Assembly (NCBI RefSeq): GCF_000702945.1
Contig: NZ_JNLE01000003.1
Coordinates: 848,001-912,000, forward strand
Origin: Clostridium sp. KNHs205
Lineage (GTDB): Bacteria; Bacillota; Clostridia; Lachnospirales; Lachnospiraceae
Direction: 5' to 3'
DNA length: 64,000 nucleotides
Shown here: one piece after another, positions 2,420-12,391 of the stretch
Layout of the letters: every line of letters begins with the position of its first letter
Position numbering within the stretch: the first letter of the stretch is position 1
Translations under genes and position numbers: made by a program
Notes under the pieces: generated by a model
Databases searched by the model: none
What the model was told of the DNA's origin: nothing
Seen by the model: only the letters and a program-made list of their open reading frames with translations

Positions 2420-2686
2420 ATGCATCCGTATATGGAAGAGAGAATCATTGAGCTAGCCAATTATACTATTGAAAACAAAGCAACTGTAAGAGAGACTGCC
2501 AACCGCTATGGCATTAGTAAATCAACTGTACATAAGGATCTGCAGGATAGACTGCCGGGAATTAACGGTCAGCTATATAATGCGGTCAATGAAATTCTGA
2601 TGTTTAACAAAGCAGAACGGCACATAAGAGGTGGACTGGCTACGAGAAAGAAGTACAGAAAGACTTTAAGCAGTGCAGGTGTATGA
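2420..2686 (+). CDS. spoIIID: Sporulation transcriptional regulator SpoIIID, intact copy
   Basis: A small DNA-binding protein that activates and represses mother-cell genes after sigma-E and helps switch to sigma-K. At 88 aa it is close to the 93 aa of the B. subtilis protein. The helix-turn-helix is around residues 21-42 (ATVRETANRYGISKSTVHKD) and the conserved C-terminal basic DNA-contacting region is ERHIRGGLATRKKY (66-79). It starts with ATG and has a sigma-E-like promoter. Its DNA at 2526-2537 (CTGTACATAA, then GG) differs by one base from the 12-bp repeat that bounds the element in the second spoIIID 1.2 kb downstream, so two paralogous loci lie side by side. Confidence 0.95.
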   Translation: MHPYMEERIIELANYTIENKATVRETANRYGISKSTVHKDLQDRLPGINGQLYNAVNEILMFNKAERHIRGGLATRKKYRKTLSSAGV

Positions 2687-3812: not shown

Positions 3813-3843
3813 TGATATAATTTGCAATTACCTTGCATACAAT
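3813..3843 (+). promoter_or_regulatory. Sigma-E-like promoter of interrupted spoIIID
   Basis: CATACAAT (3836-3843) is a perfect match to the sigma-E -10 consensus. A TGATATA (3813-3819) lies 16 bp upstream as a -35-like element. It is 31 bp before the TTG start of the split spoIIID, consistent with mother-cell expression. Confidence 0.55.
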
Positions 3844-3874: not shown

Positions 3875-4021
3875 TTGAAAGGCTATATAGAAGAACGTGC
3901 AGTAGAAATAGCCAACTACATAATCGACAACAATGCGACCGTGAGGCAGACAGCAAAGCAGTTTGGCATTTCAAAATCAACTGTACATAAAGCCGTTACA
4001 AAAGTGAACGAAGTAACTTGA
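3875..4021 (+). CDS. spoIIID: Second spoIIID, 5' half (interrupted gene)
   Basis: This frame encodes 48 aa starting at TTG 3875, after AGGGGG (3861-3866). Residues 1-39 are a normal SpoIIID N-terminus with the complete helix-turn-helix, including GISKSTVHK (31-39). After K39 the frame enters element DNA, adds nine unrelated residues and stops, so the conserved C-terminal basic region is missing. The rest of the gene lies 8.17 kb away at 12162-12313. Bases 3875-3992 joined to 12162-12313 give a continuous 270-bp frame of 89 codons plus stop. The joined product aligns without gaps to residues 1-79 of the intact copy, with 46 identities by my count. The unexcised product probably cannot work as SpoIIID. 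Confidence 0.9.
   Translation: MKGYIEERAVEIANYIIDNNATVRQTAKQFGISKSTVHKAVTKVNEVT
3981..4000 (+). repeat. Left attachment site (attL)
   Basis: Core CTGTACATAAAG (3981-3992) is followed by two differing bases and then GTTACA (3995-4000), which the right site also has. The core contains the palindrome TGTACA and encodes T36-V-H-K39 of SpoIIID. Confidence 0.85.
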
Positions 4022-4035
4022 AAGGAGGGAATTAA

Positions 4036-4257
4036 TTGGAGGACCCGGAAAATGACAAGAACCTTATGGTAGTGGAGGCTATAGAAGGATATGCCTGGAA
4101 TCACAATATGAAACCCTGGGAAGTCTTTCTGCTCTTCAGGCACAATGGTATATTAGAGCTTCTGCGTACGCAGTACAAGCTATTGCATACACAAAGTCTG
4201 GAAGAAAGCATATACTTTGTGGAGGACATTTTAAGGAGAAGGCAGAATGAAAAATGA
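4036..4257 (+). CDS. DUF3791 family protein
   Basis: A 73-aa helical, acidic protein matching the DUF3791 pattern (WEVFLLFRHNGILELL around residues 28-43). It starts with TTG after AAAGGAGGG (4021-4029); that Shine-Dalgarno overlaps the stop of the split spoIIID. Its last 11 bases overlap the next gene, so the two are translationally coupled. DUF3791 genes are repeatedly found beside DUF3990 genes on mobile elements. A partner or antidote role for the downstream protein is plausible but unproven. In the unexcised chromosome it lies immediately behind the spoIIID promoter. Confidence 0.75.
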   Translation: MEDPENDKNLMVVEAIEGYAWNHNMKPWEVFLLFRHNGILELLRTQYKLLHTQSLEESIYFVEDILRRRQNEK

Positions 4258-4765
4258 TTTTACTTTATACCATGGTACCAATGTTATGTTTGACAAGGTG
4301 GATTTAACCTATTCAAAGGATAAAAGGGATTTTGGAAGAGGATTTTATACTACGACTTTTAAGGAACAGGCAGAAGGCTGGGCTGAAAATATGTATATCC
4401 GGTATGGAGGAGAAGGCAAGTATGTCATGGAATTTAAACTGGCTGTGACAGAGGAGCTTTCTGTTAAGCTGTATCCGGGGCTTACCAGGGAATGGCTTGA
4501 GATGATTAAGAGCAACAGACTGTACGGCGGAATTCAGCATACATATGATATAGTAATCGGGCCGGTAGCCGATGATAACATAATGAGAATAATAGCTCTT
4601 TATGTAGCCGGAATATATTCTGAGGAAACAGCCCTTGACAGGCTGAGACCTTATAAGGCTCATGACCAGGTCTCGCTGCATACGGCAAAAGCACTTGAAT
4701 ATCTGAAATATACGGGAAGGAAAGAATTACCTCCTTTAAGAATTTCTGAGTTGGAAGCGGTATAA
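4247..4765 (+). CDS. DUF3990 family protein (ADP-ribosyltransferase-like fold)
   Basis: A 172-aa protein with the DUF3990 signatures LYHGTN (residues 7-12), DFGRGFYTT (28-36) and the following QAEGWA. The H-G-T and GxGFYTT-type motifs resemble the NAD-binding core of ADP-ribosyltransferase or RNA 2'-phosphotransferase-like folds. This is a resemblance, not a demonstrated activity. The start ATG overlaps the DUF3791 gene by 11 bp and is preceded by AAGGAGAAGG. Together with DUF3791 it could form a toxin-antitoxin-like module that stabilises the element. No signal peptide or membrane segment is visible, so it should act in the cytoplasm. Confidence 0.75.
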   Translation: MKNDFTLYHGTNVMFDKVDLTYSKDKRDFGRGFYTTTFKEQAEGWAENMYIRYGGEGKYVMEFKLAVTEELSVKLYPGLTREWLEMIKSNRLYGGIQHTYDIVIGPVADDNIMRIIALYVAGIYSEETALDRLRPYKAHDQVSLHTAKALEYLKYTGRKELPPLRISELEAV

Positions 4766-4772
4766 AGACAGC

Positions 4773-4889
4773 ATGAAAGAAAATATGGTTGAGTATAAAA
4801 TTAAAAATGTACTGAATTATAAGTTTCTAAGTAATCAGTACTCCAGACAAGCCTGGGATACGCATAAGTATGAAGCCAGAATGAGATAA
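4773..4889 (+). CDS. Possible 38-aa small ORF
   Basis: A short frame starts 7 bp after the DUF3990 stop and is rich in Lys, Tyr and Asn. No Shine-Dalgarno is visible, and translation by read-through coupling would be needed. I do not recognise it. It may be spurious. Confidence 0.2.
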   Translation: MKENMVEYKIKNVLNYKFLSNQYSRQAWDTHKYEARMR

Positions 4890-4912
4890 AGAACATTTGC
4901 ATTTCTTATTAT

Positions 4913-4930
4913 CCGCAAGACCGCTTGCGG
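4913..4930. repeat. Perfect GC-rich hairpin without U-tract
   Basis: CCGCAAG (4913-4919) and CTTGCGG (4924-4930) form a 7-bp stem with a 4-nt loop. No T-run follows, so it is not a standard terminator. A related GCAAG...CTTGC motif occurs in the structured leader at 19011-19026. Confidence 0.5.
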
Positions 4931-4970
4931 CAAGCATGTCAGGTTGGAAATAAAAAAAGGAAAGGATGTC

Positions 4971-5273
4971 ATGCCACGCTTTTCAACCTTTTCTATTTGT
5001 GGCAGTATTCCAGGCTGCCCTGGAATATGCAGTGGGATAAATATGCAGAACCGTTATATATACAGGGACGAAGATGTTACCCTGGATGTTATAATTAAAA
5101 TTGAACACGTAGTACGACTGATAGCCCGAGAAACCGGTAAACCCTTTGATGACTGCCTCTATGAGTTCTATCGATCAAAAGTTTATGAAATGCTGCAGAA
5201 AACAGGCTCTCTAATGTGGGTAGAGAGCGCAGAATTCATAACAGATGAATATTTCAGAGAGAATCCCTTATAA
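4971..5273 (+). CDS. Small conserved-looking protein in DUF3791/DUF3990 group
   Basis: 100 aa from ATG 4971, which follows AAAGGAAAGG; an upstream TTG at 4944 has no Shine-Dalgarno. The N-terminus has an unusual Cys/Gly/Pro run (CGSIPGCPGIC). The rest is helical with FYRSKVYEMLQ and LMWVESAEFITDEYF. I recall such short proteins beside DUF3990 genes, but I cannot name the family. If an ATG at 5043 were used, the Cys-rich part would be leader only. Its 3' end overlaps the convergent corA gene by 6 bp. Confidence 0.5.
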   Translation: MPRFSTFSICGSIPGCPGICSGINMQNRYIYRDEDVTLDVIIKIEHVVRLIARETGKPFDDCLYEFYRSKVYEMLQKTGSLMWVESAEFITDEYFRENPL

Positions 5274-6200
5274 GAACTTTTTCTTTTTAAAGTATAAGAT
5301 ACAAATGATTATAACTGAAACACTTAATATAATTACACCAAGATAACCGTATTTCCAGCCAAACTCGGGCATGTTAAAATTCATTCCGTACCAGCCTACA
5401 ATCAGAGTCAGCGGCAGGAATATCGTAGTAACAACAGTAAAGAGCTTCATGATGCTATTTAGATTATAATCCATCTGAGAATGGTAGGAATCCCTTACAT
5501 GAATGCTGTAATCCTCCAGTTTTCTTACATTGTTGCTTAAGCGGGTAACTCTGTCAGTAAACAGTTTAAAGTAACGTAGCTTGTCCTCTTCAAACAGTCC
5601 GATGGAATTGTCCATCAGCTCATCTCCGATGGAAATAAGCTGCTCGTAATAATTACCCAGAAGAAGCAGTCTTTTTCGTGTCTTTGTGATTTGGTGATAA
5701 AAGTCCTTGGGAAATCTGTTTTCATCTATACTGTCTTCGAAGCTGCTGATGCTGTCTTCTATCTCCTCAAGAATAATAAAATTATTCGTCAAAAATCTTT
5801 CTAAAAATCCATATATCAAACGTTCCAGCGAGATCTTCGTAAAATTAATCTGGCTTAAGGAATCCATTAAATCCTTATGAATACTGTTATCCTGGTCTTC
5901 TATAATTACAATCAGAAAAAGGTTTTCCTTAATATAGATGCCTATTCTGTCCTCCAGATGAATAAAGTACTTTGTATCAATAGCTCTGATAATTCCAAAA
6001 TGGTAATCATCATAAATTCCCATTCCGCCATGGAGCTTCCTGGTAACATCCTGACATTCCAATACAGTGGCCTCAGCAAAACCAAAGGAGCTATAGAGTT
6101 CTGAGAGTTCCTTGAGGTTTATAATGCCTAGAGTAAGGACGGAGGGATTATAATCTTTTAAGTCAATTGGTCTGAGACTGTCCTGAAGCTGATAGAACAT
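5268..6200 (-). CDS. CorA-family magnesium/divalent cation transporter
   Basis: A 310-aa membrane transporter. It has a long soluble N-terminal alpha/beta and coiled-coil domain, then two C-terminal membrane helices (about residues 248-270 and 282-302). The diagnostic YGMNF loop stands between them, followed by a Lys-rich cytoplasmic tail. CorA proteins are pentameric channels for Mg2+ (some for Co2+, Ni2+ or Zn2+). The chosen start is the ATG at 6200, preceded by AAAGGGAA; a start 17 codons upstream has no ribosome site. It lies opposite to its neighbours inside the spoIIID element, so it would be lost from the mother-cell chromosome on excision. Substrate specificity is not readable. Confidence 0.9.
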   Translation of the reverse strand: MFYQLQDSLRPIDLKDYNPSVLTLGIINLKELSELYSSFGFAEATVLECQDVTRKLHGGMGIYDDYHFGIIRAIDTKYFIHLEDRIGIYIKENLFLIVIIEDQDNSIHKDLMDSLSQINFTKISLERLIYGFLERFLTNNFIILEEIEDSISSFEDSIDENRFPKDFYHQITKTRKRLLLLGNYYEQLISIGDELMDNSIGLFEEDKLRYFKLFTDRVTRLSNNVRKLEDYSIHVRDSYHSQMDYNLNSIMKLFTVVTTIFLPLTLIVGWYGMNFNMPEFGWKYGYLGVIILSVSVIIICILYFKKKKFL

Positions 6201-6443
6201 AGAAAATTCCCTTTCTGATTTCTTTTTCAAGAGTATACCATATAAATACAATGGTTAAAATATCTAAATATAAGAAAGTTATAATTAATGGAAGAAAGTG
6301 CAAAATTAAACCATAAGAAATACAGTATATGGGGGTATTGTAATTATTTATTATAAAATTATGGGAAATAAATCATATATTAGCAAAACATATAAATAGC
6401 ATTATTATATTTAATAAAAAACCTATGCTCATAGAACTTTTAA

Positions 6444-6496
6444 AAACTGTCCCAATCCTTTATAATAGACAATGTTCGCCTGCAAAGGGGCAGTTT
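6444..6496 (+). promoter_or_regulatory. NCS2 permease promoter inside an inverted repeat
   Basis: A consensus -10 TATAAT (6461-6466) has only a weak -35 (TTTTAA, 6438-6443). Inverted arms AAACTGTCCC (6444-6453) and GGGGCAGTTT (6487-6496; one wobble position) flank it. This could be an operator. No purine riboswitch signature was found. The rest of 6201-6524 is A+T-rich without genes. Confidence 0.5.
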
Positions 6497-6524
6497 ATAT
6501 ATTTTACAATTAAAGGAGAAAGTT

Positions 6525-7946
6525 ATGGAAAAGTTTTTCAAACTGAAAGAAAACGGCACCACGGTTTCCACAGAAATTGTAGCTGGTATCACAACTTTTT
6601 TTGCGATGGCTTATATTATCTTCGTAAATCCACAGATGCTTAGTCAGACAGGTATACCTTTTGGGGCGGTATTTCTGGCAACCATTATAGCTTCTGTAGC
6701 CGGCACCCTGGTAATGGCACTTTTTGCAAATGTGCCTTATGCGCAGGCACCTGGTATGGGACTAAATGCATTTTTTACGTATACCGTTGTTTTCCTTCTT
6801 GGTTTTTCCTGGAAAGAAGCATTGGCAATGGTTTTCCTGTGTGGCCTTATCAATATTTTAATAACTGTAACCAAAGTTCGTAAGTTAATCATCAAAGCTA
6901 TTCCTTCCAGCCTTCAGAGCGCTATCGGCGGCGGAATTGGTATATTCATAGCATATCTGGGTATTAAAAATGCCGGATTACTGAAATTTACTTTAGATCC
7001 GGGTACTTATACTGCATTGGATAGCGGAACTGTTATCGGCGGAAGCAGCGCTGTACCTGCTCTTGTAGATTTTGACAACAAAGCAGTTATTCTTTCCATC
7101 ATTGCGATTGCTCTGTTTGTAATACTACTGGTTCTAAAGGTAAAAGGAGCTATTCTTATAGGTATAGCTGCAACAACCATTATCGGAATTCCTTTAGGAG
7201 TTGTTAATGTTTCTGACTTAAGTGGTACTACAGGACTGGGAGAATCTTTCTCACAGCTTGGTACAACCTTTGGCGCTGCACTTGGTGCAGATGGCCTTGG
7301 TTCACTTTTCAGCGATGCTTCAAGAATTCCTCTCGTATTAATGACTATATTTGCTTTCAGTTTATCCGATACTTTTGATACAATCGGAACTTTTGTTGGT
7401 ACAGGTAAGAGAACCGGTATCTTTGATGCTGCTGATGAGAAAGCTCTTCAGGAGGGAAACGGATTTAAATCTAAGATGGACAAGGCTTTATTTGCGGATT
7501 CTGTTGCAACCTCAATTGGTGCCATCTTCGGAACCTCTAATACTACTACTTATGTTGAAAGTGCTGCAGGAATCGGAGCCGGCGGACGTACTGGTCTTAC
7601 CAGCGTAGTTACCTCTTTGTTATTCCTTTTAAGTATCTTCCTTGGACCTATTGTTAACATTGTACCTCCTCAGGCAACTGCACCTGCGCTTATAGCTGTT
7701 GGTATCATGATGATGTCCTCCTTTAAGGAAATTAACTGGGCAGATCTGGATGAAGCAATCCCTGCTTTCTTTGCATCTATTTTCATGGCTTTCTGCTACA
7801 GCATATCTTATGGTATCGCTGCCGGTTTTATCTTCTATTGCATCGTAAAGATTTGCAAGGGAGAAGCAAAGAAGATTCATCCTATCCTTTGGGTGGTAAC
7901 AGGTTTATTTGTATTAAATTTCATTGTATTAGCTGTAATTCAGTAA
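6525..7946 (+). CDS. NCS2-family (AzgA-type) purine permease
   Basis: A 473-aa inner-membrane proton symporter of the AzgA/PbuG/PbuO branch, importing adenine, guanine or hypoxanthine. Family marks are GITTFFAMAYIIFVNP (residues 21-36), QAPGMGLNAFFTYT (about 68-81), the acidic FSLSDTFDTIGTFVG region (about 278-292) and SNTTTYVESAAGIGAGGRTG (about 338-357). Twelve or more hydrophobic segments are visible. It starts with ATG after AAAGGAG. It has its own promoter and a terminator into which a group II intron has inserted. It is carried by the spoIIID element. The purine preferred cannot be told. Confidence 0.93.
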   Translation: MEKFFKLKENGTTVSTEIVAGITTFFAMAYIIFVNPQMLSQTGIPFGAVFLATIIASVAGTLVMALFANVPYAQAPGMGLNAFFTYTVVFLLGFSWKEALAMVFLCGLINILITVTKVRKLIIKAIPSSLQSAIGGGIGIFIAYLGIKNAGLLKFTLDPGTYTALDSGTVIGGSSAVPALVDFDNKAVILSIIAIALFVILLVLKVKGAILIGIAATTIIGIPLGVVNVSDLSGTTGLGESFSQLGTTFGAALGADGLGSLFSDASRIPLVLMTIFAFSLSDTFDTIGTFVGTGKRTGIFDAADEKALQEGNGFKSKMDKALFADSVATSIGAIFGTSNTTTYVESAAGIGAGGRTGLTSVVTSLLFLLSIFLGPIVNIVPPQATAPALIAVGIMMMSSFKEINWADLDEAIPAFFASIFMAFCYSISYGIAAGFIFYCIVKICKGEAKKIHPILWVVTGLFVLNFIVLAVIQ

Positions 7947-7992
7947 TAAATTCAGGCACGATAATAAACCTGATATAAATAAAATATCCTAT

Positions 7993-8031
7993 AAAAGAAG
8001 GTCACGCATGAGCGCTGGCCTTCTTTTAATT
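7993..8031 (+). terminator. Terminator of NCS2 gene, intron target
   Basis: AAAAGAAGG (7993-8001) pairs with CCTTCTTTT (8019-8027), with an inner GC-ATGA-GC hairpin. The group II intron begins right after its T-rich tail, as class C introns do. Confidence 0.85.
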
Positions 8032-9922
8032 GTGCGCCTGGCGGCGCACGTTTCTAATGGGTGAAAGTCCCTAGTCTGCCCTAGTAGTGGGAAAGACACA
8101 GCCAAGACCAAGGGTGTCGTGGGTGACTGCGAATCTGAAGGAAGGTGGAGGCAAATCTCTGGTCTGACGAACAGAAATCACATCAGGCTACAGTTAAGGA
8201 TAAGACTGCAATACAAGTTAAAGTCCAATAACTACTCGGAATTAACTGTAGTAAATGTGGCAGATGGATGGAGAGAAAGAAACGTGTGGTACCCAGGGAG
8301 ATCTCGTCAGCAAGTGAAAACAGAGTATGAAACTTGTAGTAACAACGAATGACGAGAAGTCAGCCGAGGTCATAGTACCATTTCAGTTGCAAATGATATG
8401 GGAAGGACTGAACTTTAGGAGGTACAAGCAATGAAAGTAACTGATAGTAGATTTAAGAACAGACAACTTCATATGGAAGACTATCTGCAAATGGTATCTG
8501 CGGAACAGAAAGAGGATGCAGAAGTGTTCGACTACGGGAAGATTACTGAAAAGAGCGGTATCATCACAAACTATTGGATGAATAATCTCTTGGAATTGAT
8601 TTTGCGAAAAGATAACCTCAACAAGGCATATAAGCGAGTGAAATCAAATAAAGGAGCAGGTGGAACAGATGGAATGCAGGTGGATGAACTTCTGCCCTAC
8701 TTAAAGGAAAACCAAGACACCTTAATTCAAGAGATAAAGGGAGGCAGATTTAAGCCAAACCCAGTTCGAAGGGTAGAAATACCAAAAGAAACAAAAGGTG
8801 AGTTCAGAAAGCTTGGAGTTCCAACCGTGGTTGACCGAGTTATCCAACAAGCAATCATACAAGAACTAACGCCTATCTACGAGGAGCAGTTCTCAGAAAA
8901 CAGTTTTGGTTTTCAGCCGAAAAAAGGTGCACATGATGCACTGAAACAATGCCAAAAGAATGTAAACGAAGGCTACGTATATGTGGTTGATATGGATTTG
9001 GAAAAGTTCTTTGATACCGTATGCCAGAGTAAGCTGATTGAGGTATTGGGAAGAACCATCAAAGATGGCAGAGTTATCTCTTTGATACATAAATACCTCA
9101 ATGCTGGAGTGATAACAAAAGGGGTGTTTGAGAAAACAGAGGTCGGCATGCCACAAGGTGGACCATTAAGTCCATTGCTAAGTAATATCATGCTAAATGA
9201 GTTGGACAAGGAACTTGAAAGCAGAGGACATAGGTTTGTCCGATACGCAGATGATTGCATGATTTTCTGTAAAAGCAAAAAGAGTGCAGAAAGAACCTTG
9301 GAAAACATCATACCATTCATTGAGAAAAGGCTATTTCTGAAAGTGAATAGGAAGAAAACGCAAGTCGCGCACATCAGTAAAGTTAAATATCTTGGATATA
9401 CATTCTATAGATATAGAGGTAAATGCAGATTTAGAGTACATCCGAAATCCGTAACAAAGATGAAAGACGCAATACGAAATCTGACAGACCGAAACAATGG
9501 CATGAGCAACACAGCGAGAGAAGATAAATACCAACAGTTTGTGAGAGGATGGATAGAGTACTTTAAACTCGCAGATATGAAGAATCTTCTAAAAGGCATA
9601 GATGAATGGGCTAGACGCAGAATACGAGCGGTCTATTGGAAACAGTGGAAGAAAATCAAGACAAAGTACAGAATGCTTAGAGCCATAGGATGTGAGCATT
9701 GGAGAGCCAAAGAACTTGCCTGTAGTAGAAAAGGGTACTGGCGCATGGCGCAAGTGCTGAACCAGATATTTTCTAATAAAATAATAGCCAAGCTAGGATA
9801 TACATCCATGCTTGACTATTATCTGATAGTTTATGAAAACTAAAGAACCGCCGTATACGGAACCGTACGTACGGTGGTGTGGGAGGTCGGTAGATAAAAT
9901 AATTATCTACCTCCTACCCGAT
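8032..9922 (+). mobile_element. Group II intron, copy 1 (bacterial class C type)
   Basis: A 1891-bp intron. It starts with the GTGCG boundary (8032-8036) and ends with CCTACCCGAT (9913-9922). Domain V is visible at about 9844-9880 (GAACCGCCGTATACGG ... CCGTACGTACGGTGG) with a CGC-type triad, and a domain VI hairpin lies around GGTAGATA/TATCTACC (9890-9914). A reverse transcriptase/maturase is encoded in the middle. Insertion directly 3' of an intrinsic terminator, and a protein without an endonuclease domain, are class C traits. The 77-aa frame at 8119-8352 is ribozyme RNA, not a gene. Copy 2 (24720-26610) has the same length and nearly the same sequence. Confidence 0.95.
8431..9843 (+). CDS. 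ltrA: Group II intron-encoded reverse transcriptase/maturase (copy 1)
   Basis: A 470-aa protein that folds and splices its intron and copies it into new sites. RT blocks run from KGAGGTDGM (about residues 75-83) through FGFQPKKGAHDA to the catalytic YADD (272-275). A maturase (X) domain follows (KYLGYTFYRYRGKCRFRVHPKS), with GWIEYF and the RAKELACSRKGYWRMA end. No HNH endonuclease domain follows, as in class C. It starts with ATG after TAGGAGG. Residue 234 is Glu here and Lys in copy 2; one silent change (8667 versus 25355) is also visible. It should be active, as no frame is broken. Confidence 0.96.
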   Translation: MKVTDSRFKNRQLHMEDYLQMVSAEQKEDAEVFDYGKITEKSGIITNYWMNNLLELILRKDNLNKAYKRVKSNKGAGGTDGMQVDELLPYLKENQDTLIQEIKGGRFKPNPVRRVEIPKETKGEFRKLGVPTVVDRVIQQAIIQELTPIYEEQFSENSFGFQPKKGAHDALKQCQKNVNEGYVYVVDMDLEKFFDTVCQSKLIEVLGRTIKDGRVISLIHKYLNAGVITKGVFEKTEVGMPQGGPLSPLLSNIMLNELDKELESRGHRFVRYADDCMIFCKSKKSAERTLENIIPFIEKRLFLKVNRKKTQVAHISKVKYLGYTFYRYRGKCRFRVHPKSVTKMKDAIRNLTDRNNGMSNTAREDKYQQFVRGWIEYFKLADMKNLLKGIDEWARRRIRAVYWKQWKKIKTKYRMLRAIGCEHWRAKELACSRKGYWRMAQVLNQIFSNKIIAKLGYTSMLDYYLIVYEN

Positions 9923-10074
9923 TTTATATTCTTTTACAATCCGACGATAACCGGAGCAGGAATGGAGTAAACTGCATTGACTGAGATAATTTTACTGGTG
10001 TAAATTTGTCCGCAAAATAAACATATCGCAGAAAGAGTTGTCATAAGATTAAATAAAAACAATTGGCTGGAAAA

Positions 10075-10242
10075 ATGAAACAATTAAAACAAGAGAAACA
10101 ACTGGCTGGGAGAAAAAAATTAAAAGTTACTTTCCATAATACTGACCCTAAAGCACGTACTGCTAAATATCTGGTTGAAATTATAAAAGAAGTAATTGGG
10201 AATAAACATAAACAGGGGACAGAAAGGGATGACTTTTTTTGA
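10075..10242 (+). CDS. 55-aa basic small protein coupled to the recombinase
   Basis: A frame too short for usual ORF cut-offs: very Lys-rich N-terminus (KQLKQEKQLAGRKKLK), then HNTDPKARTAKYLVEIIKEVIG, predicted beta plus helix. Its stop TGA (10240-10242) overlaps the recombinase TTG start (10239), and the recombinase Shine-Dalgarno lies inside it, so the two are translationally coupled. The size and placement recall short transposon proteins (TnpW-like) found before serine recombinases. They also recall recombination directionality factors of skin-like elements and SP-beta (SprB, about 58 aa). No homology was tested. The region 9923-10074 before it holds no other gene; TTGACT (9977-9982) with TAAATT (10001-10006) is a possible promoter. 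Confidence 0.55.
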   Translation: MKQLKQEKQLAGRKKLKVTFHNTDPKARTAKYLVEIIKEVIGNKHKQGTERDDFF

Positions 10243-11705
10243 GGGCAGCGGCATACTGCAGAGTATCAACAAAAAGAGAAGAGCAGCTTGACAGTTTGGA
10301 AAGCCAACAGAAGTTTTTCCAGGATTATGCAGAAAGGAACGGTTATGAGCTGGTGAATATCTATGCAGATGAGGGGAAGAGCGGTACAAAGATGAAAAAC
10401 CGAACCCAGCTGCTTAGATTGCTGGCGGATGCATCTCAGAATGCCTTTGATCTGGTTCTGATAAAGGATATCTCAAGACTGGCTAGAAATACCGTTGACT
10501 TCCTTACCAGTATCCGCAGATTAAAATCAAAGGGAATTAAAGTAATCTTTGTTAATTATGATCAGACCTCCTCGGAAAGCTCAGAGTTTATGCTGACCAT
10601 GTTAAGTGCCATAGCACAGGAGGAAAGTGCCAATACCTCTAAGCGGGTCAGGTTTGGGAAAAAGCAGAATGCAAGGCTTGGAAGAGTACCGAATCTCATT
10701 TATGGCTATGATAAAATCCCGGGAGATTACTTCGAGCTTAGAATCAACGAAAAAGAAGCGGAAATAGTCAAGCGTATTTTTACCCTGTATACTCAACAGA
10801 GAAAAGGGGCAGGTAAAATTGCGGACATACTTAATGCGGAGGAGATCAAGACTAAAAGGGGCTGTTCCTGGAGTCAGATTGGGATATGCCGTTTACTTGG
10901 CAATGAGATATATACAGGAAAGATAATAAATGGAAAAGAGGAGATAGAAGACTTTCTGACTGGTAAAAGAAGGGCTTTGGATAAGGAACAATGGCAGATT
11001 ACCTATAAGCCGGAATTTCGGATTGTAGATGATGAGGTGTTTCAGAAGGCACAGGAAATAAAGAATAAGAGGAATAAGGACAAAGAGCTTAAAAAGAGCA
11101 GGGAGTCAAATAAACACCCCTTCAGCCAGCTTATCAGATGTGACCATTGCGGAGGCTATTTCAGAAGACTTACCAGGAATTATAAAACACCTGTGGTAAC
11201 CTGGGTATGCAGCACCCGTAATATGAACGGAACTCAAAGCTGCTGTAATAATATAACAATCCGGGAAGAGGAGCTGCTTGAAGCGCTTATTAACGGCTTG
11301 ACGGATATAATCAGGCAAAGTCCTAATGCTCTGCGTACTTTGTCAGATTGCTGTTATAGTGGGGCAGGTTCTTCTGATTACTATAATAAGGAAAAGATTC
11401 AAAGTGAAATCAGTAAAAAAGACAAGCAGCGTCAAAAGTACATAGAGCTTTATACGAAAGAAATTATCTCAATGGAAGAATTACGGGAGAGGACATATAA
11501 TCTTGCTGATGAGATTCAAAAATTAAATAATCAATTGCAGGAGACAGAGGGAAAGGATAATCCTTCACCGCCACCAAAATGCAATCCTGAATTCTATGTA
11601 AAAGAAGTTTTTTCTGATAATGTGAACCTGCGGCGTATTCTCGACAGACTTGAAGCTGATGACGAAGGAAATGTTGATATTTATCTTAAAAGGAATCTTT
11701 TTTAA
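10239..11705 (+). CDS. Large serine recombinase, SpoIVCA-like
   Basis: A 488-aa site-specific recombinase. The N-terminal resolvase domain has the catalytic serine S10 in AAYCRVST and the active-site arginine region KDISRLARNT (about residues 77-86). A recombinase domain follows (GKIADILNAEEIKTKRG), then a zinc ribbon with C301 and C304 plus later cysteines, a coiled-coil, and a C-terminal tail. Its length is near that of SpoIVCA (about 500 aa), which excises skin from sigK. The start is TTG 10239, 10 bp after AAAGGG; an ATG at 10229 directly abuts that site and is out of frame. It lies 445 bp from the right repeat and is the obvious enzyme for joining the spoIIID halves. Confidence 0.95.
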   Translation: MRAAAYCRVSTKREEQLDSLESQQKFFQDYAERNGYELVNIYADEGKSGTKMKNRTQLLRLLADASQNAFDLVLIKDISRLARNTVDFLTSIRRLKSKGIKVIFVNYDQTSSESSEFMLTMLSAIAQEESANTSKRVRFGKKQNARLGRVPNLIYGYDKIPGDYFELRINEKEAEIVKRIFTLYTQQRKGAGKIADILNAEEIKTKRGCSWSQIGICRLLGNEIYTGKIINGKEEIEDFLTGKRRALDKEQWQITYKPEFRIVDDEVFQKAQEIKNKRNKDKELKKSRESNKHPFSQLIRCDHCGGYFRRLTRNYKTPVVTWVCSTRNMNGTQSCCNNITIREEELLEALINGLTDIIRQSPNALRTLSDCCYSGAGSSDYYNKEKIQSEISKKDKQRQKYIELYTKEIISMEELRERTYNLADEIQKLNNQLQETEGKDNPSPPPKCNPEFYVKEVFSDNVNLRRILDRLEADDEGNVDIYLKRNLF

Positions 11706-11750
11706 CCAAGCTGCACATACCCGTTATTTAAGGTATGTGCAGTTTTGGTT
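11704..11750. terminator. Terminator between recombinase and XRE gene
   Basis: An 11-bp perfect stem, CTGCACATACC (11711-11721) with GGTATGTGCAG (11732-11742), is extended by AACCAA/TTGGTT flanks. It can serve both convergent genes. Confidence 0.85.
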
Positions 11751-11761
11751 TGGATTTTACA

Positions 11762-11986
11762 TCACTCTTTATTTAAGAGCCACAGAATACTTACATTTAG
11801 AGAGTCTGCCAATGCTACCAGTTCGATGTCTGTTACCGGCCGCTTATAGGATTCGATCTTAGATATGGAGGTGCTCTCCATATAGACACCTCGTATAGCC
11901 AGTCTGGCAAGCAAGTCAACTTGTGTTATTTTCGGGTTTTTCTTATATCTTGCTTCTCTAACCCGATCGCCGATAAGATTTTTCAT
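11762..11986 (-). CDS. XRE-family helix-turn-helix regulator
   Basis: A 74-aa, single-domain Cro/CI-type DNA-binding protein. The helix-turn-helix spans about residues 23-50 (TQVDLLARLAIRG ... TSISKIES), ending in the usual VTDIELVALADSLNVSILWLL. The start is the ATG at 11986, 8 bp after GGAG; a GTG three codons earlier overlaps that site. It faces the recombinase tail to tail and reads away from the right attachment site. A -10 motif (TATAAT on the minus strand, 12026-12031) lies upstream. It is probably the element's own regulator; the target is unknown. Confidence 0.85.
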   Translation of the reverse strand: MKNLIGDRVREARYKKNPKITQVDLLARLAIRGVYMESTSISKIESYKRPVTDIELVALADSLNVSILWLLNKE

Positions 11987-12149
11987 ATGTATCACTCCGT
12001 TTTTCTAAAATATAGCAACAATTTGATTATAAAAGATGTAAATGCGAATATCTTGCTTATAGAGCAAATCATTCGACAAAAAATTAGAAATCCATTGTTG
12101 CTTTATCAGTATGCCACATAAATACGTTTTACATTCATAATTGTTACAC

Positions 12150-12169
12150 CTGTACATAAAGATGTTACA
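12150..12169 (+). repeat. Right attachment site (attR)
   Basis: Core CTGTACATAAAG (12150-12161) and, after two differing bases, GTTACA (12164-12169), repeat the left site. A further GTTACA lies just before the core (12143-12148). The flanking 11987-12149 holds no gene that I can support. Confidence 0.85.
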
Positions 12170-12313
12170 GAACGTTTAGGGCAGCTTAATCCTACGCTTG
12201 CAGATCGGGCAAGAATCGTGCTGGATTTAAACAAATCTGAAAGGCATATCAGAGGCGGTTTAGCCACAAAAGAAAAGTATTTACATAAAACGAAATATAG
12301 TCAAGCATACTAA
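12162..12313 (+). CDS. spoIIID: Second spoIIID, 3' half (no start codon)
   Basis: This frame encodes residues 40-89 of SpoIIID: DVTERLGQLN, then the conserved KSERHIRGGLATKEKY (residues 64-79) and a stop at 12311-12313. The frame is open from 12122, but no ATG, GTG or TTG occurs before the conserved part, so it cannot be translated alone. It is undamaged: no frameshift or stop, and a good terminator follows. This argues for a gene that is used after joining with 3875-3992 rather than a decaying relic. The C-terminal basic region is needed for DNA binding in B. subtilis SpoIIID, so only the joined form should be active. Confidence 0.88.
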
Positions 12314-12360
12314 TGAGTAGTAGTCTATTAATTAGAAATAACTATAATTCCCCATAAGGA

Positions 12361-12391
12361 AAAGCTCTTCTTAAAACAGAAGGGCTTTTTT
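12361..12391 (+). terminator. Terminator of the split spoIIID
   Basis: AAAGCTCTTCT (12361-12371) pairs with AGAAGGGCTTT (12378-12388) with one wobble pair, followed by further T residues. Confidence 0.9.

What the first reader, a model, noticed from the sequence alone, without database searches (positions are those of the whole stretch)
3875..12313. A skin-like element splits a second spoIIID gene
The 5' part of a spoIIID gene (3875-3992) and its 3' part (12162-12313) lie 8.17 kb apart, in the same orientation, each next to a copy of CTGTACATAAAG. Joining them at the repeat restores one in-frame 89-codon gene. The product aligns without gaps to the intact SpoIIID at 2420-2686 (46 of the first 79 residues identical by my count). 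Neither half has a stop or frameshift, the 5' half has a sigma-E-like promoter and the 3' half a terminator. A SpoIVCA-type serine recombinase lies inside. Known developmental elements of this kind interrupt sigK and a few late genes; I know of none in spoIIID.
Basis: partly seen in the sequence, partly recalled or inferred. Interest (0 to 1): 0.95.

Follow-up and report, generated by a model that had tools for sequence, protein, structure and literature searches.

The report
Excisable DNA element splits spoIIID
In the bacterium Anaerocolumna the gene for the spore-formation regulator SpoIIID is cut in two by an 8-kb DNA element that is likely removed by its own recombinase in the spore-making mother cell, which would rejoin the gene; the same split is found in 13 of the 15 genomes of the genus examined and recurs in other Clostridia.

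Summary
In detail: the halves at 3875-3991 and 12158-12313 join in frame at a shared core into an 89-codon gene. One correction: the split gene is the canonical spoIIID (up to 89% identical to intact SpoIIIDs elsewhere); the intact neighbour at 2420 is a divergent paralog. In Anaerocolumna 13 of 15 genomes have both halves and a homologous serine recombinase. All 13 joined genes are 89 codons under strong purifying selection, and the recombinase is inherited vertically. Two traces of the rejoined state exist: a database protein identical to the joined product, and a congener assembly that breaks exactly at the core on all four ends. A putative directionality factor precedes the recombinase behind a sigma-E-like promoter in 12 of 12 elements examined. 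The same codon is split in 14 other Lachnospiraceae genera and in further families, and virus-collection contigs carry the matching attP and integrase. Mother-cell timing is inferred. Eight paper searches found no interrupted spoIIID. It is a new variant of skin-type elements, moved from sigK to its upstream activator.

The parts
2420..2686 (+). Intact SpoIIID paralog (88 aa), divergent; a separate clade in the tree
   Evidence: PF12116 123.5 bits; 13 Anaerocolumna paralogs form one clade at 100/100
3817..3843 (+). Sigma-E-like promoter of the split spoIIID (ATAAT-N14-CATACAAT)
   Evidence: 0 mismatches in 12 of 13 Anaerocolumna genomes tested, same distance to the start; G005 2 mismatches
3875..3991 (+). 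5' half of canonical spoIIID, codons 1-39, TTG start; unexcised frame runs on to a stop at 4021 (48 aa)
3981..4010 (+). attL: repeat CTGTACATAAAG (core ACATA 3985-3989) and left element arm ending in GAACG (4006-4010)
4036..4257 (+). DUF3791 protein (73 aa)
   Evidence: PF12668; tblastn homologs in 8 genus loci incl. the window
4247..4765 (+). DUF3990 protein (172 aa)
   Evidence: PF13151; 8 genus loci incl. the window
4944..5273 (+). Unknown protein (109 aa)
   Evidence: no Pfam match; 8 genus loci incl. the window
5268..6251 (-). CorA-like transporter
   Evidence: PF01544; 10 genus loci incl. the window
6525..7946 (+). NCS2-type nucleobase permease
   Evidence: PF00860; 13 genus loci incl. 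the window
8117..9917 (+). Group II intron (RNA domains at 8117-8287, 8335-8408, 9846-9917) with reverse transcriptase ORF 8431-9843; a later passenger
   Evidence: Rfam RF02001, RF01998, RF00029; RVT_1+GIIM; RT absent from all other genus loci searched
10023..10049 (+). Sigma-E-like promoter of the RDF-recombinase pair (ATATC-N14-CATAAGAT)
   Evidence: pattern at this place in 12 of 12 Anaerocolumna elements examined, 0 of 6 others
10063..10242 (+). Putative recombination directionality factor (59 aa from TTG, or 55 aa from ATG at 10075); overlaps the recombinase start
   Evidence: profile hits in 18 of 20 elements, 16 of them used to build the profile
10239..11705 (+). Large serine recombinase (488 aa), catalytic motif YCRVS
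   Evidence: PF00239, PF07508, PF13408; PDB relatives over the catalytic domain; motif in all 31 class-1 rows
11762..11995 (-). Small HTH protein (77 aa), possible element repressor
   Evidence: HTH_3 at E 2e-4, below cut-off; 7 genus loci incl. the window
12128..12161 (+). attR: right element arm and repeat CTGTACATAAAG (12150-12161; core 12154-12158)
12158..12313 (+). 3' half of canonical spoIIID, codons 39-89 and stop; no ATG/GTG/TTG in frame between the upstream stop and the half
   Evidence: start codons read from the sequence
12358..12391 (+). Hairpin with U-rich 3' arm, possible terminator
   Evidence: fold z -3.5; not called by the consensus scan

Best explanation
The canonical spoIIID gene is split at codon 39 by an 8.17-kb element that is predicted to be cut out in the mother cell by its own large serine recombinase, helped by a likely directionality factor encoded just before it, which would rejoin spoIIID. 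Inferred steps: (1) sigma-E, made after asymmetric division, transcribes the 5' half of spoIIID and, in Anaerocolumna, the directionality factor-recombinase pair. (2) The recombinase crosses attL and attR over at the CA of the ACATA core; the element leaves as a circle and the chromosome carries an 89-codon spoIIID. (3) Joined SpoIIID then activates sigK and the later mother-cell genes. (4) The forespore keeps the element, so the next generation is split again. Because the split gene is SpoIIID itself, excision cannot wait for SpoIIID as in B. subtilis and C. difficile; sigma-E alone, or the intact paralog at 2420, must suffice. The lineage behind it is a phage-type integrase that uses spoIIID as its attachment site across Clostridia; in Anaerocolumna it has been kept by vertical descent as a fixed part of the genome.
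For: Both halves in 13 of 15 genus genomes, same codon; G003 partial, G001 none. 13 of 13 joined genes are 89 codons with no stop or indel; pN/pS is 0.013 (codons 1-38) and 0.061 (39-80), lower than in the intact paralog (0.136, 0.143). The 3' half has no usable start of its own, so its conservation needs the joined gene. Recombinase homolog in all 13 and in G003. Recombinase distances track the chromosomal sigE-sigG region (Mantel r 0.92, P 0.0001, 13 genomes). Over 26 genomes the one stretch shared by every attL/attR pair is the dinucleotide CA, where the arm spacing also puts the centre; attP arms are 5 bp longer than the attB 3' arm. The rejoined protein exists in a public collection, letter for letter. 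In congener G012 four contig ends stop at the same 9-bp core, with the 7042-bp element as its own contig. Sigma-E-like promoters: 5' half in 12 of 13; directionality-factor gene in 12 of 12, expected 0.56 of 18. sigK uninterrupted in 11 of 15 genus genomes; SpoIVA in 12 of 15.
Against: No reads or expression data: timing and cell type are inferred. The protein P0125 sits on a 1373-bp contig of withheld source and could come from a strain that lost the element. G003's 3' half stops matching after about codon 57; its assembly is 63% complete. The sigma-E-like pattern for the directionality factor was chosen after seeing six of the twelve genomes; only the other six are an independent test (6 of 6). 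No such promoter was found in front of that gene in the six other-genus elements, and no consistent one directly before the recombinase. The directionality factor is a guess from position and conservation. The paralog could make the split gene dispensable.
Confidence: 0.85

Rival explanations
1. An integrated mobile element (phage remnant) sits in spoIIID and leaves at random or under stress, not on a developmental schedule; spoIIID is merely its attachment site.
For: The recombinases of other genera are very alike across genera (short branches), as expected of recent horizontal spread; IMG/VR contigs carry attP and a 45%-identical integrase with phage-type genes; within one Clostridia genus some genomes are split (G404, G463) and others intact (G378, G511, G539). 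No sigma-E-like promoter was found before the directionality-factor gene outside Anaerocolumna.
Against: In Anaerocolumna the element is in 13 of 15 genomes and vertically inherited, the halves stay under strong selection, and the directionality-factor gene has a sigma-E-like promoter in 12 of 12.
Confidence: 0.1
2. spoIIID has been broken for good; the intact paralog at 2420 took over and the halves are relics.
For: An intact paralog lies directly upstream in all 14 genus genomes with a split gene. G003 shows an incomplete 3' half.
Against: 13 of 13 joined genes are free of stops and indels and are more constrained than the paralog. At least 14 other genera have only the split gene and no intact copy. 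A protein identical to the joined product exists.
Confidence: 0.03
3. The truncated 48-aa product of the 5' half is itself the active regulator and the 3' half is irrelevant.
For: The 5' half holds the helix-turn-helix part (profile positions 1-42 of 82) and is the more conserved half (pN/pS 0.013).
Against: The 3' half, which cannot be translated from a common start on its own, is also conserved (pN/pS 0.061, 13 genomes); the reading past codon 39 in the unexcised gene differs between species.
Confidence: 0.02

Closest known systems
skin element in sigK of Clostridioides difficile (CD1231/CD1234; PMC5025042, abstract and passages read) and of Bacillus subtilis (SpoIVCA/Skr; PMC6957869, passages read)
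   Same: Serine recombinase inside the element, recombinase next to the 3' half, short shared repeat at the two joints, small separate directionality factor (in B. subtilis its gene overlaps the recombinase gene, as here), mother-cell gene as target.
   Different: Target is spoIIID, not sigK. [quoted passage not shown] The att sequences differ from any I read about; no phage genes were recognised in the window's element.
gin element in gerE of Bacillus cereus (PMC5595907, passages read)
   Same: Splits a very small gene for a mother-cell transcription factor; no phage genes; recombinase plus a separate small factor.
   Different: gerE acts after sigma-K, spoIIID before it; gin carries three serine recombinases and the window's element one. 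The class-2 elements seen here in G125, G179 and G214 do carry two or three.
yin in yabG of Clostridium botulinum (PMC10747680, passages read); SP-beta in spsM and vfbin in spoVFB as that paper lists them
   Same: Intervening elements in sporulation genes with integrated and excised forms coexisting in culture.
   Different: Other target genes; yin is described there as unique to one strain, whereas this split is near-universal in a genus.
Regulated gene integrity by integrative elements (Mageeney et al. 2020, 10.1093/nar/gkaa156)
   Same: General concept: an element breaks a host gene and its exit restores it.
   Different: The paper is not held. From recall its abstract names sigK and spsM among known cases and does not name spoIIID; its full list was not seen.

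Membership tests
Sporulation gene-intervening (skin-type) elements | Interrupts a sporulation gene whose halves join in frame | tested here: met
   13 of 13 in the genus; 15 of 15 joined genes of other genera in frame, 83-93 aa
Sporulation gene-intervening (skin-type) elements | Carries its own site-specific recombinase | tested here: met
   intact frames with YCRVS motif in 31 of 31 class-1 rows
Sporulation gene-intervening (skin-type) elements | Direct short repeat at both joints, inside the gene | tested here: met
   12 bp in the window; at least CA shared in 26 of 26 genomes, ACATA in 18 of 26
Sporulation gene-intervening (skin-type) elements | Rejoined gene or excised circle can be found | tested here: inconclusive
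   identical joined protein P0125 and four-way contig break in G012; no reads seen, and not from the window's own strain as far as the tools tell
Sporulation gene-intervening (skin-type) elements | Excision restricted to the mother cell during sporulation | not testable with these tools
   only sigma-E-like promoters
Sporulation gene-intervening (skin-type) elements | Separate directionality factor needed for excision | tested here: inconclusive
   candidate in 18 of 20 elements; function untested
Large serine integrases | Resolvase catalytic domain followed by Recombinase and zinc-ribbon domains | tested here: met
Large serine integrases | attP half-sites about 5 bp longer than attB half-sites (rule recalled) | tested here: met
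   GAACG-like motif at +16 on the attB 3' side in 27 of 27 rows (motif list permissive, and the place codes for conserved Glu-Arg); exact GAACG at +21 on the attL arm in 14 of 27, +22 in one, not scored in 12; attR arm at +22 in 22 of 27. The attB 5' arm was not tested
SpoIIID (PF12116) | Full-length match of the joined product and grouping with canonical SpoIIID | tested here: met
   halves match positions 1-43 and 35-81; split genes nest among intact SpoIIIDs of relatives

The most novel reading that the evidence does not exclude
spoIIID is a Clostridia-wide attachment site for a phage integrase lineage, and Anaerocolumna has domesticated one such integrase into an obligatory developmental switch: the mother-cell programme cannot pass from sigma-E to sigma-K until DNA is cut out of spoIIID. 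The DNA-rearrangement checkpoint has thus moved one tier up, from sigK to its activator, and an intact SpoIIID paralog covers the early, pre-excision phase.
Probability: 0.55. Interest if true: 0.9.

Novelty: new variant of a known kind. Interest (0 to 1): 0.83.

Why it matters
Known developmental excisions in spore formers restore sigK or later genes, and in the two best-studied cases SpoIIID itself drives the excision. Here SpoIIID is the gene that is restored, so the order of the cascade must be different, and this is testable. The set found here spans the whole path from free virus-like form with attP, through recently spread insertions in many gut and soil genera, to a fixed, vertically inherited element in one genus. 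It gives a natural series for asking how a parasite becomes a developmental switch. It also means that spoIIID will look missing or broken in automatic annotation of many genomes that may sporulate perfectly well.

Tried and rejected
Searched for the window's recombinase in viral contigs by protein: none confirmed; the attP pattern did find three contigs, and a wider pattern found the same three. Looked for the HK97-type capsid Pfam in those three records: 0 of 3; they may be fragments, and 3 of the 9 L214 proteins examined had no phage-family match. Looked for sigma-E promoters directly upstream of 22 recombinases plus G012: one perfect match, no consistent site; a first scan before the directionality-factor gene with a strict -10 gave nothing consistent, and only the looser pattern did. 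Looked for the window's flanking genes around 32 uninterrupted spoIIID loci of other genera: none shared, so gene neighbourhood gives no support outside the genus. Assembly artefact rejected: several single-contig genomes show the split (G006, G008, G009, G010, G011, G014, G270). Checked whether G135's contig ending at the core is the same locus as its intact copy: no shared flank, so not used as evidence. The 75-kb insertion of G154 was not shown to be a prophage. The survey of Mageeney et al. could not be read. Rows dropped before counts: G003 (incomplete 3' half) and G001 (no spoIIID); G003 and G013; G013; G125 and G179 (class 2) from the spacing counts and, and G012.
Full report
What is there. 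The window lies in a 6.36-Mb genome (G000, contig C3). By the names and contig lengths of its closest recombinases its genus is Anaerocolumna: P0001 of Anaerocolumna sp. AGMB13020 lies on a 5,810,646-bp contig, as G014 does, and A. sedimenticola, A. sp. MB42-C2 and A. cellulosilytica match G006, G008 and G009 in the same way. The genome holds three SpoIIID (PF12116) matches: an intact gene at window 2420, a 5' half at 3875 and a 3' half ending at 12313. The halves meet at CTGTACATAAAG, present twice in the window, and join into an 89-codon gene. Between them lie DUF3791 and DUF3990 proteins, a 109-aa protein of unknown kind, CorA, an NCS2 permease, a group II intron, a small protein overlapping the recombinase start, the recombinase, and a small HTH protein on the other strand.

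Which copy is split. The joined product is up to 89% identical to uninterrupted SpoIIIDs of other Lachnospiraceae (80 best loci kept of a capped list). In a 67-row tree the 13 split genes sit among intact SpoIIIDs, next to L034, while the 13 intact Anaerocolumna paralogs form their own clade (100/100; few columns, many forks unresolved). So the canonical gene is the split one.

Genus-wide. Of 15 genus genomes, 13 have both halves; G003 (63% complete) has a 5' half and a 3' piece that stops matching after about codon 57; G001 (63% complete) has neither. None has an uninterrupted canonical gene in the PF12116 search. The twelve intervals measured run from 4.8 to 27.0 kb. A recombinase homolog is present in all 13 and in G003: 90-91% identical in G012 and G014, 50-60% in the other genus genomes. 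It lies within 2 kb of the 3' half in 12 of 13; in G004 it is about 16 kb away. The thioesterase gene upstream of the paralog is found at 14 of 14 genus loci, so the locus is the same. The 13 joined genes are all 89 codons. Pooled pN/pS is 0.013 for codons 1-38 and 0.061 for codons 39-80; for the intact paralog it is 0.136 and 0.143. The recombinase has diverged along with the chromosome: Mantel r 0.92, P 0.0001, against the sigE-sigG region in 13 genomes. This is what a long-kept, working arrangement looks like.

Site and chemistry. In 26 genomes with both joints (class-1 elements) the run shared by attL and attR always covers the CA of ACATA, and CA is all that is common to every pair. Independently, the arm spacing puts the centre of symmetry at the same CA: the GAACG motif starts 21 bases from the core start on the attL arm and 22 on the reverse-complemented attR arm (exact or near counts in the membership table). 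On the attB 3' side the motif is at 16. The attP arms are therefore 5 bp longer than attB, the spacing rule of large serine integrases (recalled). The recombinase has the domains of that family, and PDB matches cover its catalytic domain.

Traces of excision. First, a collection of 5.8 billion proteins holds P0125, 89 aa, on a 1373-bp contig with four member sequences. Its sequence is letter for letter the joined product of the window, down to the Leu of the TTG start; the next best proteins are 91% identical. Its source is withheld, and it may be an excised chromosome or a strain without the element. Second, the assembly of congener G012 is broken exactly here: contig C5 ends, contig C53 starts and ends, and contig C60 starts with the same TACATAAAG; C53 is 7042 bp and is the element, recombinase included. 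Two copies of 9 bp do not by themselves break an assembly; a mixture of joined and unjoined molecules does (inference).

Control. The 5' half has a perfect sigma-E-like promoter, 31-32 nt before the start, in 12 of 13 genus genomes tested; outside the genus, of eight tested, G105 is perfect, G303 and G044 have one mismatch, and the other five two or three. The small protein before the recombinase (motif FHNPN...TA.YL) is found by profile in 18 of 20 elements, 16 of which made the profile. In other genera it can lie kilobases from the recombinase, which suggests a separate conserved function; I propose that it is the directionality factor. In B. subtilis the directionality gene skr overlaps spoIVCA in the same way (PMC6957869, passages). 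In 12 of 12 genus elements examined an ATAnn-N14-CATAnnWW pattern lies just before this gene; 0 of 6 other-genus elements have it; 0.56 of 18 were expected from random windows of the same elements. I chose the pattern after seeing six of the twelve, so the independent score is 6 of 6. Directly before the recombinase there is no consistent site. In C. difficile excision of skin needs sigma-E and SpoIIID (PMC5025042, abstract and passages). Here it cannot need the SpoIIID it creates.

sigK. In 15 genus genomes sigK is full-length in 11, split in G002, partial in G013 and not matched in G001 and G003. In the 14 other genera with a two-half spoIIID, sigK is uninterrupted in 13 and split in G261; in 17 genomes with intact spoIIID it is uninterrupted in 16 and split in G353. 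So the two interruptions can coexist, and spoIIID is the usual place in these lineages.

Beyond the genus. Among 299 Lachnospiraceae genomes, nearly one per genus, 189 have a SpoIIID match. Nineteen of these have no full-length match; 14 of the 19 show both halves, nine on one contig, and five show one half. One, G270, is a one-contig genome with the halves 17.7 kb apart. A recombinase 43-51% identical to the window's lies beside the 3' half in 11 of the 14. G171 has a fragment of a distant one at its contig start. G125 and G179 carry unrelated-looking serine recombinases and other arms at nearly the same codon, a second class. Two further genomes (G431, G533) have a single weak match and were not followed. 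Outside Anaerocolumna the recombinases differ little between genera, which points to recent spread; the host spoIIIDs follow their hosts. Three virus-collection contigs carry a palindromic attP with a 45%-identical recombinase ending about 50 bp away; the three recombinases are identical, so this may be one virus. Six of nine neighbouring proteins match phage families, such as DNA polymerase, PhoH and a head-maturation protease.

What is known. Papers seen: PMC5025042 (abstract, passages), PMC6957869, PMC5595907, PMC10747680, PMC3533761, PMC3416734, PMC12888040, PMC10294663, PMC10111431 (passages). They name sigK, spsM, spoVFB, gerE, yabG and kamA as interrupted; none of the passages names spoIIID as interrupted. 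Eight searches found no such report. The library lacks most subscription papers, and the most relevant survey was not held.

Shown and inferred. Shown: the split, its conservation, the recombinase, the site geometry, the vertical descent, a protein identical to the joined product, the assembly break. Inferred: that excision is made by this recombinase with the small protein, that it happens in the mother cell under sigma-E, and that it gates sigma-K.

Noticed in passing
L182-L185, L190 (G125, G179, G214); L201 (G267): A second class of insertions at nearly the same spoIIID codon, with other arms (GATGATGGYGTCATAATA / TATTATGACGCCAGCA) and, in G125, G179 and G214, two or three distant serine recombinases in a row: an independent lineage chose the same target.
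   Followed up: partly
L177-L181 (G333, G341, G159, G260, G036), L064, L048: Non-disruptive variants: promoter and 5' half of spoIIID are duplicated up to the core, an attL-like arm follows, and an intact spoIIID lies 2-7 kb downstream; no recombinase found there. L048 has two such 5' halves in tandem.
   Followed up: partly
L213 (G002 C62:161476-170956); G261 C1; G353 C2: sigK itself is split in these three genomes; G002 and G261 have both sigK and spoIIID split.
   Followed up: no
window 5268-7946: CorA and an NCS2 permease are carried inside most Anaerocolumna elements (10 and 13 genus loci), so the mother cell would lose both transporters on excision.
   Followed up: partly
window 8117-9917: A group II intron sits inside the element just before the directionality-factor promoter; its reverse transcriptase was not found at any other genus locus searched.
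   Followed up: partly
L214, L215, L216: IMG/VR contigs of 50, 69 and 119 kb with the same attP and identical recombinase, plus anaerobic ribonucleotide reductase genes next door.
   Followed up: partly
proteins P0003, P0004: Two database recombinases nearly identical to the window's lack about 33 residues in the Recombinase domain; they may be disabled copies in sister strains.
   Followed up: no
attL arms of many elements, e.g. window 3993-4010: The element arm (GTAACAAAAT and variants) resembles the SpoIIID-binding motif TGTAACAAT quoted for C. difficile in PMC5025042; SpoIIID might bind its own att site.
   Followed up: no
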